From Bombella saccharophila (GTDB lineage: Bacteria; Pseudomonadota; Alphaproteobacteria; Acetobacterales; Acetobacteraceae): a stretch of DNA of 64,000 nt. The notes under the pieces were generated by a model. That model did not search any database. It was not told where the DNA came from and saw only the letters and a list, made by a program, of their open reading frames with translations. The DNA is taken from the NCBI RefSeq assembly GCF_026385475.1, contig NZ_JANIDW010000003.1:186001-250000 (forward strand), in the 5' to 3' direction. A program made the translations under genes and the position numbers. Positions 15,689-42,259 of the stretch are shown piece by piece. Position 1 is the first letter of the stretch, and each line of letters starts with the position of its first letter.

Positions 15689-16495
15689 CTAGATTTGGTA
15701 GTTTGTGAAATCTTGGTCCATATCACCAAAACGGACGATGCGGGCGGGGTTGCCTACGGCGGTGGAGCGTGGTGGGACATTGCCTAATACAACTGAGGCA
15801 GCGCCGACTCTTGCATAGGCCCCAATTTCTAAATAACCGAGAATTTTTGCCCCAGCCCCAATCATACAGCCTTGCCGAATAATAGGGTGGCGTTGTCCCC
15901 CATTTTTACCCGTGCCGCCAAGGGTGACATCTTGGAAGAGAGAGACATCATCCTCAATGATGGTCGTCTCCCCAATAACGATGCCCGTGCCGTGATCAAT
16001 GGTAATGCGTTGTCCAATTTGTGCTGCGGGGTGGATGTCGATGCCGAATTTTTCATTCACACGGCTTTGGAAGTGATAAGCAAGTGGCTTGCGGTCTGCT
16101 TGCCAGAGATGATGAGCAATACGATGGGCTTGGAGAGCTTGAAAGCCCTTAAAGAAGAGAAAAGGCGTTACAAGGTCTGGGCACGCCGGGTCGCGCTGAA
16201 ATGTAGCAACAATATCGGAGGCAGCCGCACATGTGATGGTCGGGTCGGCTTTGAGAGTGGAGGCGATAAGGCGCATGAGTGTGGGCTCTGCCATAGCACG
16301 ATCTGTCAGCTTAGCGCTGAGTAGCGATGCTAAAGCGGAGGCAAAATCCTCATGATTACAAATGTTAACAGCAAAAAGATCTCGGATGAGCGCATCAGAG
16401 CAGCAGCAAGCTTGTGCCTGCATGACGGCCCAAAATTCGGCCAGAAATTGTGGCTCAGAGGAGGATTGCGGGAATGTATCAAGAAAACCGGCCAT
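15689..16495 (-). CDS. cysE: Serine O-acetyltransferase
   Basis: 268 residues from an ATG at 16495, which gives the usual length; an upstream in-frame ATG would run back into ubiH. It makes O-acetylserine from serine and acetyl-CoA, the first step of cysteine synthesis. The N-terminal helical domain is followed by left-handed beta-helix hexapeptide repeats with the signature DHGTGIVIGETTIIEDDVSL and VTLGGTGK. The gene follows ubiH by 22 nt, so the two are likely co-transcribed although their pathways are unrelated. Confidence 0.92.
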   Translation of the reverse strand: MAGFLDTFPQSSSEPQFLAEFWAVMQAQACCCSDALIRDLFAVNICNHEDFASALASLLSAKLTDRAMAEPTLMRLIASTLKADPTITCAAASDIVATFQRDPACPDLVTPFLFFKGFQALQAHRIAHHLWQADRKPLAYHFQSRVNEKFGIDIHPAAQIGQRITIDHGTGIVIGETTIIEDDVSLFQDVTLGGTGKNGGQRHPIIRQGCMIGAGAKILGYLEIGAYARVGAASVVLGNVPPRSTAVGNPARIVRFGDMDQDFTNYQI

Positions 16496-16517
16496 AATGA
16501 GGAGACTGCCTTTAAAA

Positions 16518-17738
16518 TTATAAACCCATAGCGCGTCGGACAAACCCTTGCCGTAGGGTTGGGAGCCGTCGTAGGGCCATAAGCCCTGCATGACGGGCAT
16601 GACGGATGAAAGGGGCATCCGTGCTGAAAAGACGTTCCATCATGTCACATCCAGCGAGCATGGCAAGATTACCGGGGCGGCTTAGCTGTTGGTAACGCCG
16701 TAATAATGCAGGGGAGCCGAGGTCCTCCCCATGGGCGAAGGCCTCCCCCAATAGCGCAACGAGTGTGCGGACATCACGAAAGCCAAGATTCATCCCCTGT
16801 CCTGCAACGGGATGTAAGCCATGGGCGGCATCTCCTGCTAAAATCAGCCGTGTGGCGTAATAGCGATGGGCATATTGGGAGGCGAGCGGGTAGGTCCAAT
16901 GCGTGCCGATCAGCTCCAGTGATCCAAGCTCCTCGCCACAAAGCCGCTCCTCAATGAGACGGGCAAAATGGTGTGGGGCAAGGCTCGTGAAATGGGCGAT
17001 GCGTTTAGCGCGGTCGGTCCATACAATAGCGGAGCGGTGCGGGTGGCCTTCTATGCCGGGGAGAGGAAGGCGGGCAAAAGGGCCTTGAGGGAGGAAGTTC
17101 TCCAGCGCACTACCATGATGAGGCAGCGTATGAGCTAACACGCTGACAAGGGCCGTTTTATGATAAGGGATGCGTGTTAGGCCGATTCCAGCTTGTTGGC
17201 GTAAGCGGGATTGGCGTCCATCAGCCGCGATGACTAAAGCTGCGGAGACTGTTTCACCCGTTGAGAGCGTAATACGGGCTTCATTTTGCGTAAACTGGAA
17301 CTGCCCTGTAGCGGGAGCGCGTACATCCAGCCTCGGTTGAGAGGTGAGGGTGCGGGCAATAGCGGCGAGGAGATTATGAGCTTCGACCATCCAGCCAAAA
17401 GGGCGGTGGTCTGGGGCATCATCTTCGGTAAAGCTTAGCCCATCAGCAAGGGTGCTGCGGGAGGCTGTGGGGATTCGCCCTTGGCTATCTGTGACATGGA
17501 TGGTCGTAATCGCCTGCGGTGGTAAGGGCAGGGCCTGCCAGATACCAGCCTCTTCTAATAAAGGGCGGACACCCTCGGCTAGGGCATAAGCGCGGCCATC
17601 AGGGTTTTGGTCTGGCGTGGGGGAGAGAGGCGCGCGTTCTAATAAGAGAATACGCAGCCCCTTTTGTGCCAGAAGGCACGCCAGCGTCGCCCCGATGGGA
17701 CCGCCACCATTGATGCAGAGGTCGTAATCTGTGCGCAT
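16518..17738 (-). CDS. ubiH: UbiH/UbiF-family FAD-dependent ubiquinone hydroxylase
   Basis: 406 residues. Rossmann FAD site at the N-terminus (CINGGGPIGATLACLLAQKG), the middle DG motif (VIAADGRQSRLRQQAG), and the second FAD motif LILAGDAAHGLHPVAGQGMNLG. It hydroxylates the aromatic ring during ubiquinone synthesis; the exact ring position cannot be told from sequence. GGGAAGGA lies about 10 nt before the start. A terminator-like hairpin sits in its leader. Confidence 0.88.
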   Translation of the reverse strand: MRTDYDLCINGGGPIGATLACLLAQKGLRILLLERAPLSPTPDQNPDGRAYALAEGVRPLLEEAGIWQALPLPPQAITTIHVTDSQGRIPTASRSTLADGLSFTEDDAPDHRPFGWMVEAHNLLAAIARTLTSQPRLDVRAPATGQFQFTQNEARITLSTGETVSAALVIAADGRQSRLRQQAGIGLTRIPYHKTALVSVLAHTLPHHGSALENFLPQGPFARLPLPGIEGHPHRSAIVWTDRAKRIAHFTSLAPHHFARLIEERLCGEELGSLELIGTHWTYPLASQYAHRYYATRLILAGDAAHGLHPVAGQGMNLGFRDVRTLVALLGEAFAHGEDLGSPALLRRYQQLSRPGNLAMLAGCDMMERLFSTDAPFIRHARHAGLMALRRLPTLRQGFVRRAMGL

Positions 17739-37539: not shown

Positions 37540-40500
37540 TTACAGAGCCTCCCCCTCAGGAGAAAGCGAATAAGGGCCACCAGCCTGCACCTCAATTGTT
37601 AAGATTTGCTGGGTCGCGCTGACAGGGGGGCTATCATGTAGGGGTAAATCCGCTTCGCCTTTAGTCCAACGATGCGGCCCTGCTTCAATGATATCCCATC
37701 CCTCTAGCCCTCTATCGGTCAGGTGGCGTGTAATGATCGTCTCGCGCCCGCCATTCCAAAGTGATACTTGCCCGATGAGGATGCCGAGCTGCCGTCGGTC
37801 ATCCAAATGTGGCCCTACAGCTTCGGAGGGACGGAAAGTGCGCGAGCCAATCGTAACCTGCTGCGTATAAGCAGGGAGAGTAAAGAGGTAACGTCCTGCT
37901 TCATGCCGATGTGGGTAGAGTGTGGCACCATTTTTCAAACGGATATAGGGTGTAGGGTCTAATGTGGTTGCGTCGGCTTTATGCGTATGCGCAGGGCTTG
38001 TGAGGCCTAGCTTTGCCGCGCGAGCAGCAAACTTGTCATGCAAGGGCTTGACGAACTCTTGAGTAACACCCAGCGGAGCCGCGGCATTCTCATTCCAATT
38101 GAGTTGCTCTTGTTCGACCAAATGTAGGATGTTCGTATCATTTGCCTCATAGTGGTCTTGCAGGTCAGTATCAAGCCAGCTTTCTGTCAGCACATTATTT
38201 GCCCAAATAATGGAATGAGGGTCCGTTTTAATGTGATAATAATCATACTCTACTTGACTATGGTCATAGCGGATGGAGGTCCCATTGATGAGCATGCGAG
38301 CTGGGACGAAGTGACCTTCAAAATAGAAGCAATGCTCCGGTGTTACAGAGAGGTCTTGCTCAGGAAGGCCAGGGCCGAAGGCGTCTTTTGCTACAATAAC
38401 AGACCAACCGGCTAAATCTTCCGGTTGTGATGTGTTAACACGCGCACGACGCTGAATAACAGCTGTGATTGTGCGGGTTTCTTCATGCCCATTTTGATAG
38501 ATGCAAATCAGTTCGCCTTTACGTAGCCGTTCTACAGCTTTGTTGCCCGTAGGGGTACGGATCATACTCCCGGCGAGGAAACATTTTTCATAAATAAGAA
38601 CGGTATTGCCTTGCCCATCGTCATTAAGGACAAATCCGCCAGCATTGTAATTGCCTTTGAGGCTGAGTTGCCATGTTGTGGCACCAGACCCATTGGTTCC
38701 CCCCTCTGTAACAAAGACAGTGTTGCCTACAACGCTGGTGTGCCAGTTATCAGAGTATTTTAACCCCGCGATGCGAATACGGGCATTATACCCCATAGAG
38801 GTGTTAATGAGCGTTGCACCGGATTCTATAGTGAGCAAGCCACCGAGTTGATTAGGGTCGGCAGACCCATCGGCACCAAGAATGGTGGCCCCGGAGACAT
38901 AACCACCAGAGCTGACCATCGTATAGGGGTTTTGTGCATAAGGCCCATTGCCGGAATCGAAAGTGACAACTGTATCTAATGCTGTCCCGTTGGAGCCGAC
39001 GGCAAGTTCGTTATTGTTAGAGATACGGGCGCCACTTACCCAACCGCCGCTATTGACATCAATATGTTGAACCGAGGCCCCGGGCATCAGCACGCCAGAG
39101 GCGCCGCTCATGATGGTAAGACGGCTGATAAATGCACCAGATTGAACAGTTGCGTTACCGGCAGATAAAAACACGCTATTAATGTTAGCACCAGAATCAA
39201 TGATGCTGGTCGCCCCACTGACAGCAGAAAGAGTTTGTACCCCCGCCCCGCCGACAGGGATCTCCACCGTAGCTCCGTTGAGCATAATATTGGGGACAGT
39301 AGCCCCGCTGGAGAGAAGTACAGACCCCCCACGATTAACACCTAGTGCACTGACAACAGCCCCAGAGAGGATGTTCCCTGTTCCGCGGGAGCCAAGGGTG
39401 ATGGCATCAACTGTCCCACCAGTGTTAACAGAGACTACAGCACTATTAAGGCCAAGGGCGCTGGCTGTAATATTTGTTACATGGACGCCTGAATCAAGCG
39501 AGATGAGGCCGCCCGTTAGTTGGGCTGTGGCGCCATCTGCAACATAAGCCCCTGTTTGGAGGGTAACCGTGCCGTTACTGATGGGGGAAAAATTGCTGGC
39601 TGTCCCGCCAGAGCCTAAAATGAGCTGACCATTTCGTTGCGCCCCGGCTATAGAGGTTACTGCCCCTCCATTGACCATGACAGTCCCACCAAAGGCGGTG
39701 CTATTATTGGGGTCGTATCCGGCGATAGCCGCCCCAAGGGAGACGCCACTTTGTGTAAGTAAGCCTGTTCCGTTGGAGCCTGCGGCGTAAATAGCGGATA
39801 TAGTCGCCCCGGGGTTAGCGATAACCGTCCCCGCACTGGCAACAAGATAATCTGCCGTTACGCCAGAGACAGGTGCAAGGGTTTGGTTGCCATCATTGAG
39901 GGTCGCCCCACTATAGATGATAGCGCCAGGATCGATTGTCCCAGTACCGCCACTATTGATGACGAGGTTACCTGCGGTCCCCCCGCTATTGAGCAAAACG
40001 GTACCTTGATTATTAATCCTAACGGCAGAGCCTGTTCCTCCAGTGGCGATTTGGATGGTACCATTACTGGCTGCCCCAATTGTTGTGGCCATCCCGCCAG
40101 AAGAAATGACGATATTACCACTTGTAAAGGCAGAAAGATTGGAGCCAAGCGCCCCAGAAGAGAGGGTGATATTGCCTTGTTGGAGGACAGACCCACCGCT
40201 TATAAAACCAGCATTACTGACTAATTCTGTTCCGCCAGAGACAAGCGGGGCAAGAGCAGAGCCACCACTTAAGACGGTGCTGATGCCGCCTGAGAGAATT
40301 GTAGAGCGATTGGCTGAGCCATCCATACCGACAATCTCTGTCCCGCCGGAAGAGACGATGTCATCAAATGATGTCCCATTGCCATAATTAAAGGTTGAAG
40401 TAACGTACCCGGAATTAAGCCATGTCAGGTAGGTGCCGCCATTTACCATGAGGGTACCACCATTAACAGCAACCATCTTGCTGGTTGTACCGCCTGAGTT

Positions 40501-41235
40501 TAAGCCTGTTGCCCCACTTAGTACGGTGGACTGAGATGCTAGGCCATTACTAAGGATAGATTGTACCGCGCTTGACCCAACAAAGAGTTGATTAATGGAT
40601 GTCCCGTTGGAGAAAATGGATTGATGGCCACCAACAGTGCCCCCACTTGCAACCCCGCCATTTCCAACCGCGTAGAGACTGCCGGGATTGAATGTTCCCC
40701 CCAGCATGACGCCGCCACTTCCGTTGGCGGAAAACCCCTTTACAATGAAGTTTGTACCCCCGCCCCCAACGAGCGCATACCCTCCTGATCCAACAATAGG
40801 ATTAATGACGGTCCCAAAGCCTTTAACACTACCGACGTCATATTGATTATTCACTGAGGATGTTACGGCACCGGCAAAGATGGCCCCAGAAGAGCCCACA
40901 ACCCCACCGCTAATGACACCACCGCCAATAGCTTCGATAGAGGCGTTGGAGAGAGCCGTTGCCCCGTACATAACGCCTCTGAGGCCCGCAATAGCGAGGG
41001 AGCCGCCATCTACGGCAATACCGTTAGTCAATGTGTTGTTAATAGCGGCAACAAGAGAGTTGGTTACCGCCCCATTAGCCCCGCTAGAGCTGCCGCTAAC
41101 ATAATAGTTTGAGACATTGGAATTCACCCCACGCGTATCGCTACCGCCGCTGAGAACCTGCGTCCATCCAGCGGGTGCTTGGTTAACGCCAATAGGGGGT
41201 AGGTCATCATATCGAGAGTCGAAACTGTAAGCCAT
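37540..41235 (-). CDS. Giant beta-helix repeat protein with Hint (Hedgehog/intein) domain
   Basis: 1231 residues. Residues ~1-880 form a Gly/Ser/Thr/Asn/Val repeat region with units of about 15-25 residues built on V-x-S-G-G-T-type turns, as in AIDA-like adhesin stalks; it seems to contain no Cys. The first Cys, Cys885 in EKCFLAGSMIRTP, opens a Hint_2 domain with the block B motif TPEH (residues 965-968) and YYHIKTDPHSIIWANNVLTESW. A charged ~190-residue C-terminal part follows. There is no Sec signal peptide and no autotransporter barrel, so export and attachment are unclear. Hint domains can cleave before the Cys. GGAAGG lies 12 nt before the start. Confidence 0.9.
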   Translation of the reverse strand: MAYSFDSRYDDLPPIGVNQAPAGWTQVLSGGSDTRGVNSNVSNYYVSGSSSGANGAVTNSLVAAINNTLTNGIAVDGGSLAIAGLRGVMYGATALSNASIEAIGGGVISGGVVGSSGAIFAGAVTSSVNNQYDVGSVKGFGTVINPIVGSGGYALVGGGGTNFIVKGFSANGSGGVMLGGTFNPGSLYAVGNGGVASGGTVGGHQSIFSNGTSINQLFVGSSAVQSILSNGLASQSTVLSGATGLNSGGTTSKMVAVNGGTLMVNGGTYLTWLNSGYVTSTFNYGNGTSFDDIVSSGGTEIVGMDGSANRSTILSGGISTVLSGGSALAPLVSGGTELVSNAGFISGGSVLQQGNITLSSGALGSNLSAFTSGNIVISSGGMATTIGAASNGTIQIATGGTGSAVRINNQGTVLLNSGGTAGNLVINSGGTGTIDPGAIIYSGATLNDGNQTLAPVSGVTADYLVASAGTVIANPGATISAIYAAGSNGTGLLTQSGVSLGAAIAGYDPNNSTAFGGTVMVNGGAVTSIAGAQRNGQLILGSGGTASNFSPISNGTVTLQTGAYVADGATAQLTGGLISLDSGVHVTNITASALGLNSAVVSVNTGGTVDAITLGSRGTGNILSGAVVSALGVNRGGSVLLSSGATVPNIMLNGATVEIPVGGAGVQTLSAVSGATSIIDSGANINSVFLSAGNATVQSGAFISRLTIMSGASGVLMPGASVQHIDVNSGGWVSGARISNNNELAVGSNGTALDTVVTFDSGNGPYAQNPYTMVSSGGYVSGATILGADGSADPNQLGGLLTIESGATLINTSMGYNARIRIAGLKYSDNWHTSVVGNTVFVTEGGTNGSGATTWQLSLKGNYNAGGFVLNDDGQGNTVLIYEKCFLAGSMIRTPTGNKAVERLRKGELICIYQNGHEETRTITAVIQRRARVNTSQPEDLAGWSVIVAKDAFGPGLPEQDLSVTPEHCFYFEGHFVPARMLINGTSIRYDHSQVEYDYYHIKTDPHSIIWANNVLTESWLDTDLQDHYEANDTNILHLVEQEQLNWNENAAAPLGVTQEFVKPLHDKFAARAAKLGLTSPAHTHKADATTLDPTPYIRLKNGATLYPHRHEAGRYLFTLPAYTQQVTIGSRTFRPSEAVGPHLDDRRQLGILIGQVSLWNGGRETIITRHLTDRGLEGWDIIEAGPHRWTKGEADLPLHDSPPVSATQQILTIEVQAGGPYSLSPEGEAL

Positions 41236-41334: not shown

Positions 41335-41859
41335 CTAAAAAATAGTAGTGATGTTAGTTGTGCATCTATAAAAATGCTGCGGTTTATTTATGCTAAAGAA
41401 TAGAAGAAGCCCATCTTTGTTAGGGGCGTGGAATTCTATTTTCGTCCCTCCTTGTATGGTCATAGTGGAGAGCATGTTGTCTTGTAGCATAAGAGGGTGT
41501 GGAGTCTCTAAATCGTCACCCGGTGGTCCATCAGGATACATGCCCTTTAAGTAATCATCAGGGGATGGAATGGCGTGGTCATTAGAGTTAGGGGAGGTGA
41601 CAACGTCAAAGGTTAATGACCCACCTAAAAACATGACGATCATGTCATCGGTCTCTGGGAGGGTTAGTAGGAAATGCCGTCCCGTGGGGATAAGGCAAAG
41701 CTCTGCCTGGTAACCATTGCGCCGGTATAAGGTGATGGTTGTGATCCCATCTTTATGGCATGTGGGTTGATGCAATGGGATGCGACGTAATCCGGGGCCG
41801 GCGGGGGAGAGGAACCATTGACGGAAAGCGTCTAGGCTTTCGATGATAGGCTGGGTCAT
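41335..41859 (-). CDS. Unrecognised 174-residue protein upstream of the Hint giant
   Basis: No signal peptide and no membrane helix. The central part (TGRHFLLTLPETDDMIVMFLGGSLTFDVV) looks like a beta-rich, possibly cupin-like barrel, and the C-terminus (KDGLLLFFSINKPQHFYRC) also reads as strands. Three Cys are present. It is 99 nt upstream of the Hint gene on the same strand and may be co-transcribed. It could be a cytosolic partner or regulator of the giant protein; this is inference. Confidence 0.6.
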   Translation of the reverse strand: MTQPIIESLDAFRQWFLSPAGPGLRRIPLHQPTCHKDGITTITLYRRNGYQAELCLIPTGRHFLLTLPETDDMIVMFLGGSLTFDVVTSPNSNDHAIPSPDDYLKGMYPDGPPGDDLETPHPLMLQDNMLSTMTIQGGTKIEFHAPNKDGLLLFFSINKPQHFYRCTTNITTIF

Positions 41860-41921: not shown

Positions 41922-42259
41922 TGGTGTCCGCGGGGGGATTCGAACCCTCGACCCCAGGATTCATACCACTTCGATTTTCATCGCCAGGCCCTTTCCGCAA
42001 CATAGGAGGGGCTGTTCGTGGTCTGGACTGTCTCTTCACCACAGGGAGGCCCTGCCGCGGTGTCGCCCGTACAGTCTCTACACCTTCCTGCGTCATCCAG
42101 AAGAATGAGGCAGGCTTGGCTCGGGATTGGCATAGCCCCTTAAATTTTTAAAGAGGCTTTAGCGTTCCCCGAATTTGAGCGAATTCACCGGATGGTTTGC
42201 CAGCCCGGTGCCCAATTAACTTAGGAATCCTGTGCTCTATCCTGCTGAGCTACGCGGAC
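41922..42259 (-). tRNA. tRNA-Arg (anticodon CCT) interrupted by a group I intron
   Basis: The 5' exon is 42259-42223 (37 nt) and the 3' exon 41961-41922 (40 nt, CCA encoded). Joined, they give a 77-nt tRNA: acceptor GTCCGCG/CGCGGAC, D arm GCTC/GAGC, anticodon stem CAGGA/TCCTG, loop TTCCTAA and T loop TTCGAAT. The T stem has one A-C mismatch. The 261-nt gap falls directly 3' of the anticodon. A possible upstream promoter on the minus strand is TTGCGA (42298-42293) with TAGGCA (42275-42270), spacing 17. Confidence 0.93.
41962..42222 (-). ncRNA. Group I intron in tRNA-Arg(CCT)
   Basis: 261 nt, inserted after U36 of the anticodon CCU and ending in G. The exon CCU can pair with GGG about 12 nt into the intron, giving a 3-bp P1 with the required U-G pair. 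Core elements of the tRNA-type (IC3-like) introns are readable: CAAATTCGGGGAA..CTAA (42177-42156), AATCCCGAGCCAAGC (42128-42114), GAAGGTGTAGAGACT..ACGGG..ACACC (42087-42059), and TGGTGAAGAGACAGTCCA (42041-42024). No homing endonuclease gene is inside. It is expected to self-splice with guanosine. Confidence 0.92.

What the first reader, a model, noticed from the sequence alone, without database searches (positions are those of the whole stretch)
41922..42259. tRNA-Arg(CCU) split by a 261-nt group I intron
Seen: two tRNA halves 261 nt apart join to a full tRNA-Arg, and the insert carries readable group I core motifs (P4-P6 and P7/P3 regions), a 3-bp CCU/GGG P1 with a U-G pair, and a terminal G. 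Known: similar introns occur in tRNA-Arg(CCU) of some Alphaproteobacteria and in Azoarcus tRNA-Ile. Inference: if this tRNA is single-copy, the cell depends on self-splicing for decoding AGG. No endonuclease is present, so it is likely vertically kept or moved by recombination.
Basis: partly seen in the sequence, partly recalled or inferred. Interest (0 to 1): 0.75.

Follow-up and report, generated by a model that had tools for sequence, protein, structure and literature searches.

The report
Self-splicing intron splits arginine tRNA gene
A bee-associated acetic acid bacterium (Bombella) carries one known copy of an arginine tRNA gene that is interrupted by a small self-splicing type of RNA intron; this is a known kind of intron, seen here in a lineage where one of its conserved folding contacts appears to have been lost.

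Summary
On the minus strand, 42259-42223 and 41961-41922 are the two halves of a tRNA-Arg(CCU), separated by a 261-nt group I intron (42222-41962) between U36 and A37. ARAGORN finds nothing without its intron option and tRNA-Arg(cct) i(38,261) with it. A 16-helix model that includes the P3/P7 pseudoknot pairs in 97.8% of cells over 55 relatives, with 39 of 77 pairs changed on both sides.

The gene is the only tRNA-Arg(CCU) found in this Bombella genome. The intron is in 10 of 10 Bombella genomes, 17 of 50 other genera of the family, and four alphaproteobacterial orders. The family is already described: Bartonella BbgpI splices in vitro and in vivo, and Asaia bogorensis has a homologue. This is a new member of a known kind.

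That AGG decoding depends on splicing is not shown: tRNA-Arg(UCU) is present and AGG is rare.

One detail looks new. All 10 Bombella introns have lost the L2 GAAA loop and the matching P8 receptor base, which every other readable row keeps; one further relative has lost only the P8 base.

The parts
42223..42259 (-). tRNA-Arg(CCU) 5' exon, 37 nt, ends in the anticodon CCU
41962..42222 (-). group I intron, 261 nt, between tRNA positions 36 and 37
   Evidence: ARAGORN with intron option i(38,261); RF00028 44.1 bits; covariation
41922..41961 (-). tRNA-Arg(CCU) 3' exon, 40 nt including encoded CCA
42211..42225 (-). P1: CCUAA/UUGGG, U.G pair at the 5' splice site
   Evidence: CC:GG and U.G in 55 of 55 sequences
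42186..42210 (-). P2 with loop L2 (CAAA at 42199-42196; GAAA in the other genera)
   Evidence: 9 of 10 pairs changed on both sides; loop tally
42177..42182 (-). P3 5' strand (3' strand 42068-42063)
   Evidence: 100% paired, 3 of 6 pairs changed on both sides
42167..42172 (-). P4 5' strand (3' strand 42126-42121)
   Evidence: 100% paired but invariant
42118..42120 (-). P6 5' strand (3' strand 42084-42082), extended by P6a
42072..42076 (-). P7 5' strand (3' strand 42030-42026), the G-site helix, pseudoknot with P3
   Evidence: 100% paired, one both-side change
42037..42062 (-). P8; base 42058 is G where the 126 readable non-Bombella rows have U at the receptor
41966..42021 (-). P9 (42021-42018 / 41969-41966) with P9b hairpin and GAAA loop L9
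42396..42989 (+). DUF3576 protein, divergent neighbour
   Evidence: PF12100
42999..45608 (+). leuS; tRNA-Arg lies within 4 kb of it in 22 of 27 intron-bearing genomes of the family

Best explanation
This is a small group I intron (sub-type IC3 by its form, not formally tested) in the only tRNA-Arg(CCU) gene found in a Bombella genome. The precursor folds so that the anticodon CCU pairs with GGG of the intron as P1. Guanosine bound in P7 attacks after U36, the freed 5' exon attacks after the terminal G, and the exons join to an ordinary tRNA-Arg(CCU). Shown here: boundaries, fold, covariation, copy number, distribution. Inferred: that splicing takes place in this organism; the Bartonella bacilliformis intron of the same family splices in vitro and in vivo. 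It has no endonuclease and is inherited with its tRNA gene in this genus.
For: Intron-aware ARAGORN call. Rfam E 5.5e-10 (4). Structure over 55 sequences. Unconstrained fold. 113 of 119 loci found by pattern (112 named genomes and 1 viral contig) are complete and fit the same 5' boundary, P1 and G|AATCC 3' boundary; these were required by the pattern and the script, so that agreement is by construction. Without such a requirement on P1, 26 of 26 DNA-similarity relatives have the same junctions. 10 of 10 Bombella genomes, 17 of 50 other genera of the family. leuS synteny in 22 of 27. Intron and LeuS distances correlate. Self-splicing of the Bartonella member: PMC7717549, section 20 read.
Against: Rfam score is under the curated cut-off (44.1 against 50). 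P4 and four of five P7 pairs do not vary, so covariation there is silent (55). No RNA data. With one genome per genus the intron/LeuS correlation is weak (r 0.36, 325 of 9,999 permutations as high), and of 28 intron-less family genomes only one has its tRNA-Arg next to leuS, so deeper history need not be vertical. Bombella lacks the L2/J8 contact that its relatives keep (81), which could lower autonomous activity.
Confidence: 0.95

Rival explanations
1. A dead tRNA pseudogene that keeps an inert intron; AGG is read by tRNA-Arg(UCU) alone.
For: tRNA-Arg(UCU) is present and AGG is rare. 8 of 10 Bombella rows have an A.C mismatch in the T stem.
Against: All 10 Bombella genomes keep both exons and the whole core. 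The acceptor stem stays 100% paired with 4 of 7 pairs changed on both sides over 55 sequences. Decay would not keep P3, P7 and P8.
Confidence: 0.03
2. A mobile intron newly acquired by Bombella through transfer.
For: Sporadic presence in the family: 17 of 50 other genera. Related introns sit in several other tRNA genes. One viral contig holds an intron-bearing tRNA-Arg.
Against: No endonuclease ORF (113 complete relatives are 213-318 nt). Present in 10 of 10 Bombella at the leuS locus. The intron tree puts Bombella with Gluconobacter and Neokomagataea. leuS synteny in 22 of 27 carriers of the family.
Confidence: 0.05
3. The intron works only with help of a host protein in this genus, because a tertiary contact is lost.
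For: L2 CAAA and altered P8 in 12 of 12 Bombella rows, against GAAA in 128 of 128 others. PMC7717549 notes that cofactors are presumed in vivo (passage).
Against: The L9 GAAA loop is kept; loss of one contact need not stop splicing; lower-affinity pairs at L2/J8 are said to be frequent (PMC4705646, passages).
Confidence: 0.2

Closest known systems
tRNA-Arg(CCU) group I introns of Alphaproteobacteria (Agrobacterium; Bartonella BbgpI, PMC7717549; Paquin 1999, known to me only through that paper's text and reference list)
   Same: Same gene, CCT on both sides of the intron, same type of intron without ORF; Bartonella members align end to end with it and are in the same tree.
   Different: Longer (261 nt against a median of 229), by eye through P5, P6a and P9; L2 is CAAA and the P8 receptor is altered. 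B. bacilliformis itself was not among the loci compared by name.
Asaia bogorensis tRNA-Arg split by a group I intron homologue (PMC4596401, table footnote, passage seen)
   Same: Same family Acetobacteraceae and same amino acid; two Asaia loci (L172, L188) are in the tree.
   Different: Both Asaia loci keep the L2 GAAA loop.
Azoarcus tRNA-Ile group I intron (solved structure 1U6B)
   Same: Small tRNA intron; its L2 and L9 GAAA loops dock into 11-nt receptors (PMC3494683, table passage), and GAAA at both loops is what nearly all introns here have.
   Different: Other tRNA. The window intron keeps only the L9 loop. No direct sequence comparison with Azoarcus was made.
tRNA-Leu(UAA) group I introns
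   Same: Same core, found in several Acetobacteraceae and other Alphaproteobacteria.
   Different: Inserted in tRNA-Leu at the UAA anticodon.

Membership tests
Group I intron | Conserved core P3-P8 with the P3/P7 pseudoknot | tested here: met
   P3, P7 and P8 100% paired over 55 sequences; controls far lower
Group I intron | P1 with U.G at the 5' splice site | tested here: met
   U37.G47 in 55 of 55; part of P1 was in the search pattern for the 50 loci
Group I intron | Terminal guanosine | tested here: met
   G before AATCC in the window and 26 of 26 relatives; required by the script for the 113 loci
Group I intron | Match to RF00028 | tested here: inconclusive
   44.1 bits, E 5.5e-10, under the gathering score of 50. 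Of 11 related loci 6 gave an RF00028 hit at E 0.001 and only 1 exceeds 50, so the cut-off is poor for this branch
Group I intron | GTP-dependent splicing | not testable with these tools
   Needs RNA; splicing of Bartonella BbgpI is reported in PMC7717549
Alphaproteobacterial tRNA-Arg(CCU) intron family | Position directly after the CCU anticodon, CCT repeat on both sides | tested here: met
   ...TTCCT | intron | AATCCT; repeats named in PMC7717549
Alphaproteobacterial tRNA-Arg(CCU) intron family | Sequence kinship with named members | tested here: met
   Alignment A3 and tree with 23 complete Bartonellaceae and 51 complete Acetobacteraceae loci
Subgroup IC3 | No P5abcd domain (PMC11835236, passage); L2 and L9 GAAA loops with receptors as in Azoarcus | tested here: inconclusive
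   No P5abcd in the drawn fold and L9 GAAA kept, but L2 is CAAA and the P8 receptor is lost; no formal subtype model was run

The most novel reading that the evidence does not exclude
On the branch leading to Bombella the intron lost both partners of one conserved tertiary contact: the L2 GAAA loop became CAAA and the P8 (J8) receptor lost its U. Only the L9 contact is left, so the ribozyme of this small-genome bee symbiont is a natural one-contact version, whose splicing may rely on its longer P5/P6/P9 arms or on a host protein.
Probability: 0.5. Interest if true: 0.4.

Novelty: new member of a known kind. Interest (0 to 1): 0.22.

Why it matters
A single-copy tRNA gene with a self-splicing intron is missed by default tRNA and Rfam searches, so annotation of such genomes can lack this gene. 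The Bombella set, with Saccharibacter and Gluconobacter as near relatives that keep the L2 GAAA loop, is a ready natural series for asking how a group I ribozyme tolerates loss of a tetraloop-receptor contact.

Tried and rejected
Rejected: chance; second intact tRNA-Arg(CCT); endonuclease gene (8 overlapping ORFs of 25-102 aa; the only one on the sense strand that lies wholly inside the intron is 51 aa, too short for a homing endonuclease as I know them); recent arrival by transfer in this genus; phage or plasmid copy of this intron (phages: no match; plasmids: 5 records with 70-72% identity over 46% of the query; the one read at base level, L209, is a tRNA-Leu intron).

Led nowhere: alignment A1 mixed strands because genome-search loci are not re-oriented; replaced by A2 and A3. 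A short pattern search was too unspecific. Model R1 had a wrong RNAalifold topology; R2 was used. RF00028 at E up to 1 rings in 8 of 14 control genomes, so loose hits mean nothing. Script 92 misread L2 in many loci and 94 found none; one search replaced them. Its 24 unread loci of 65 and one evident misread (L330) are left out of claims. Host tRNAs of the survey loci were only partly classified (in one search, 19 of 28 loci were not found by the script's motif). Paquin 1999 is not held. On the gene's strand the scan shows one weak promoter-like site downstream of the gene and no terminator. The integrase of the viral record lies at 16139-16519 of 18519 and the tRNA was not in the last 4.5 kb, so an integration site is not shown. 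tRNAs for Ile(GAT), Ala(TGC) and one CAT are missing from the own-genome census; I take this as the unassembled rRNA operon, which I did not test.

Full report
What is there. On the minus strand, 42259-42223 reads GTCCGCG...CAGGATTCCT and 41961-41922 reads AATCCTGGGG...CGCGGACACCA. Joined, they are a 77-nt tRNA-Arg with anticodon CCU; ARAGORN calls tRNA-Arg(cct) on the joined exons and tRNA-Arg(cct) i(38,261) on the unspliced DNA when its intron option is on. Without that option nothing is found. The insert is 261 nt (42222-41962) and lies between U36 and A37. Rfam at its curated threshold does not report it; in E-value mode RF00028 matches 42228-42012 at 44.1 bits, E 5.5e-10.

Structure. The unconstrained minimum-energy fold of the 338-nt precursor already shows the acceptor, D, P1, P2, P3, P4, P5, P6, P8 and P9 helices (-133.1 kcal/mol, z -2.9, 1 of 100 shuffles as low). 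I drew the model including the P7 pseudoknot on the window and counted it on alignment A3: the window, 4 of the 9 other Bombella genomes, and 50 loci (the 52 left after thinning 113 by k-mer likeness, less L117 and L119, which have long inserts; two of the 50, L122 and L140, are also Bombella). Result: 97.8% of 4,223 cells pair; 39 of 77 pairs have a change on both sides; 0 of 500 shuffles reach any of five measures; sliding the partner by 1-3 columns gives 34-42%. P2, P3, P6a, P8, P9b and the acceptor stem carry most of the covariation. P4 and four of five P7 pairs never vary and so say nothing. P1 is CC:GG plus U.G in 55 of 55, with two more A-U pairs in the window; for the 50 loci part of P1 was in the search pattern.

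Copy number. The genome (G000, 1.91 Mb, 17 contigs, listed as 100% complete) has 45 tRNAs over the Rfam cut-off. ARAGORN read all 45: none is CCT. Arg(TCT), two Arg(ACG) and Arg(CCG) are there. Ile(GAT), Ala(TGC) and one CAT tRNA are missing, which would fit an unassembled rRNA operon (inference). The own genome has no second match to the gene beyond a 22-base T-arm stretch in two other tRNAs, one match to the intron-core model R2 and no other credible RF00028 hit (second hit E 0.8). AGG is 30 of 17,164 codons in 38 long ORFs of the window, present in 19 of them.

Organism. The contig of the relative G004:C5 (411,263 bases) equals that of Bombella apis MRM1 (L140) in length, and both carry a 232-nt intron; genus g1 is therefore Bombella.

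Distribution. Among 100 genomes, the own one included, a match over the gene with intron is found in the own genome, 9 of 9 other Bombella and 17 of 50 other genera of the family (G010 lacks the last 3 bases; G056 matches in two pieces around an insertion); of 40 genomes of other families one (G066) has it in pieces. At least 18 of the 33 family genera without it show the two exon halves abutting, that is, an empty site at the same position (listing truncated). With one viral contig that makes 119 loci, of which 113 were complete at both ends (112 named genomes and the viral contig); introns are 213-318 nt, median 229. In an even draw of 387 alphaproteobacterial genomes the core model R2 matched in 48 (55 matches in any tRNA or place).

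History. The tRNA lies next to DUF3576-leuS in all 10 Bombella and within 4 kb of leuS in 22 of 27 carriers; the other 5 have them on different contigs. Against a simple picture, of 28 intron-less family genomes checked (of 33) only G038 has its tRNA-Arg half within 1 kb of leuS, G046 has it 14 kb away, and 26 have it elsewhere: the leuS neighbourhood belongs mostly to the carriers. Distances of intron and LeuS correlate: r 0.74 over 26 genomes (0 of 9,999 permutations as high; G026 dropped for a split leuS), 0.64 within Bombella (10 genomes, 1 of 9,999), 0.36 with one genome per genus (17 genomes, 325 of 9,999). In the intron tree Bombella is one starred clade inside a starred Gluconobacter/Neokomagataea set, next to Asaia/Swaminathania with weaker support (bootstrap not settled, 50 of 118 inner branches open). 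So: vertical in the genus and its near kin, undecided deeper down.

A lineage-specific change. PMC3494683 (table passage) lists the L2 and L9 loops of the Azoarcus intron as docking into 11-nt receptors; [quoted passage not shown] In 140 rows (27 and the 113; several genomes occur twice), 128 of 128 non-Bombella rows hold GAAA in the P2 region (a string test; the closing pair was not required), and 126 of 126 with readable P8 have U as the first receptor base. 12 of 12 Bombella rows (10 genomes) have CAAA and A or G. Truncated Saccharibacter L093 keeps GAAA and CCTTGG. Among 40 readable loci of the wider set, which includes introns in other tRNAs, only the window lacks GAAA; L306, a tRNA-Arg(CCU) intron of the same family, keeps GAAA but has lost the U, and L330 is probably misread; 24 loci could not be read. 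L9 GAAA is kept in all 10 Bombella genomes. This is one event on one branch, so its functional weight is inference.

Known or new. PMC7717549 (section 20 and passages) describes the same family in Bartonella bacilliformis, with self-splicing in vitro and splicing in vivo, and names its first description in Agrobacterium and Paquin 1999 (not held). PMC4596401 (passage) notes in a table footnote a tRNA(Arg) of Asaia bogorensis split by a sequence homologous to a group I intron. Searches for Bombella with intron (4 papers, listing only, none on this by title or abstract), for Acetobacteraceae with group I intron and for tRNA-Arg introns of Alphaproteobacteria (22 and 25 listed only part of their hits) showed me no Bombella case and nothing on an L2/J8 loss in this genus; the library lacks most subscription papers. 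Verdict: a new member of a known kind, with one detail that looks new.

Noticed in passing
L078-L087, L277-L331 (relatives): The same intron core sits in other tRNA genes of Alphaproteobacteria: of 55 survey loci, intron-aware ARAGORN calls Leu(UAA) in 12, Arg(CCU) in 11 (the window among them), Thr(CGU) in 5, Thr(GGU) in 3; by eye I add Leu(UAA) 6, Arg(CCU) 1 and Lys 1 (ARAGORN named these otherwise); the rest are unsure or unread. One literature search on tRNA-Thr listed no bacterial case by title or abstract; papers not opened.
   Followed up: partly
L209:2390-2690 (also L208, L210): A tRNA-Leu(UAA)-like gene with a related group I intron lies unannotated near aac(3)-IId in a Salmonella plasmid record; Klebsiella and Acinetobacter plasmid records match the intron core, also near that gene. 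Described only.
   Followed up: partly
L207:236-551: A viral contig (IMG/VR, 18.5 kb) holds an intron-bearing tRNA-Arg(CCU) whose intron groups with Skermanella; the record also has an integrase match at 16139-16519, and the tRNA is not in its last 4.5 kb.
   Followed up: partly
window 41949-41933: T stem of the tRNA has an A.C mismatch in 8 of 10 Bombella; the other two pair fully.
   Followed up: no
window 37540-41235 (-): 1,231-aa repetitive protein with a C-terminal Hint_2 domain (PF13403), downstream of the tRNA.
   Followed up: no
window 41335-41859 (-): 174-aa protein without Pfam match; a 35-53% identical relative lies beside the tRNA in 8 of the other 9 Bombella: fast evolving.
   Followed up: no
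L117, L119, L306: tRNA-Arg(CCU) introns of Acidicaldus (318 nt), Bartonella tamiae (278 nt) and an unnamed member of the family (314 nt) have larger inserts.
   Followed up: no
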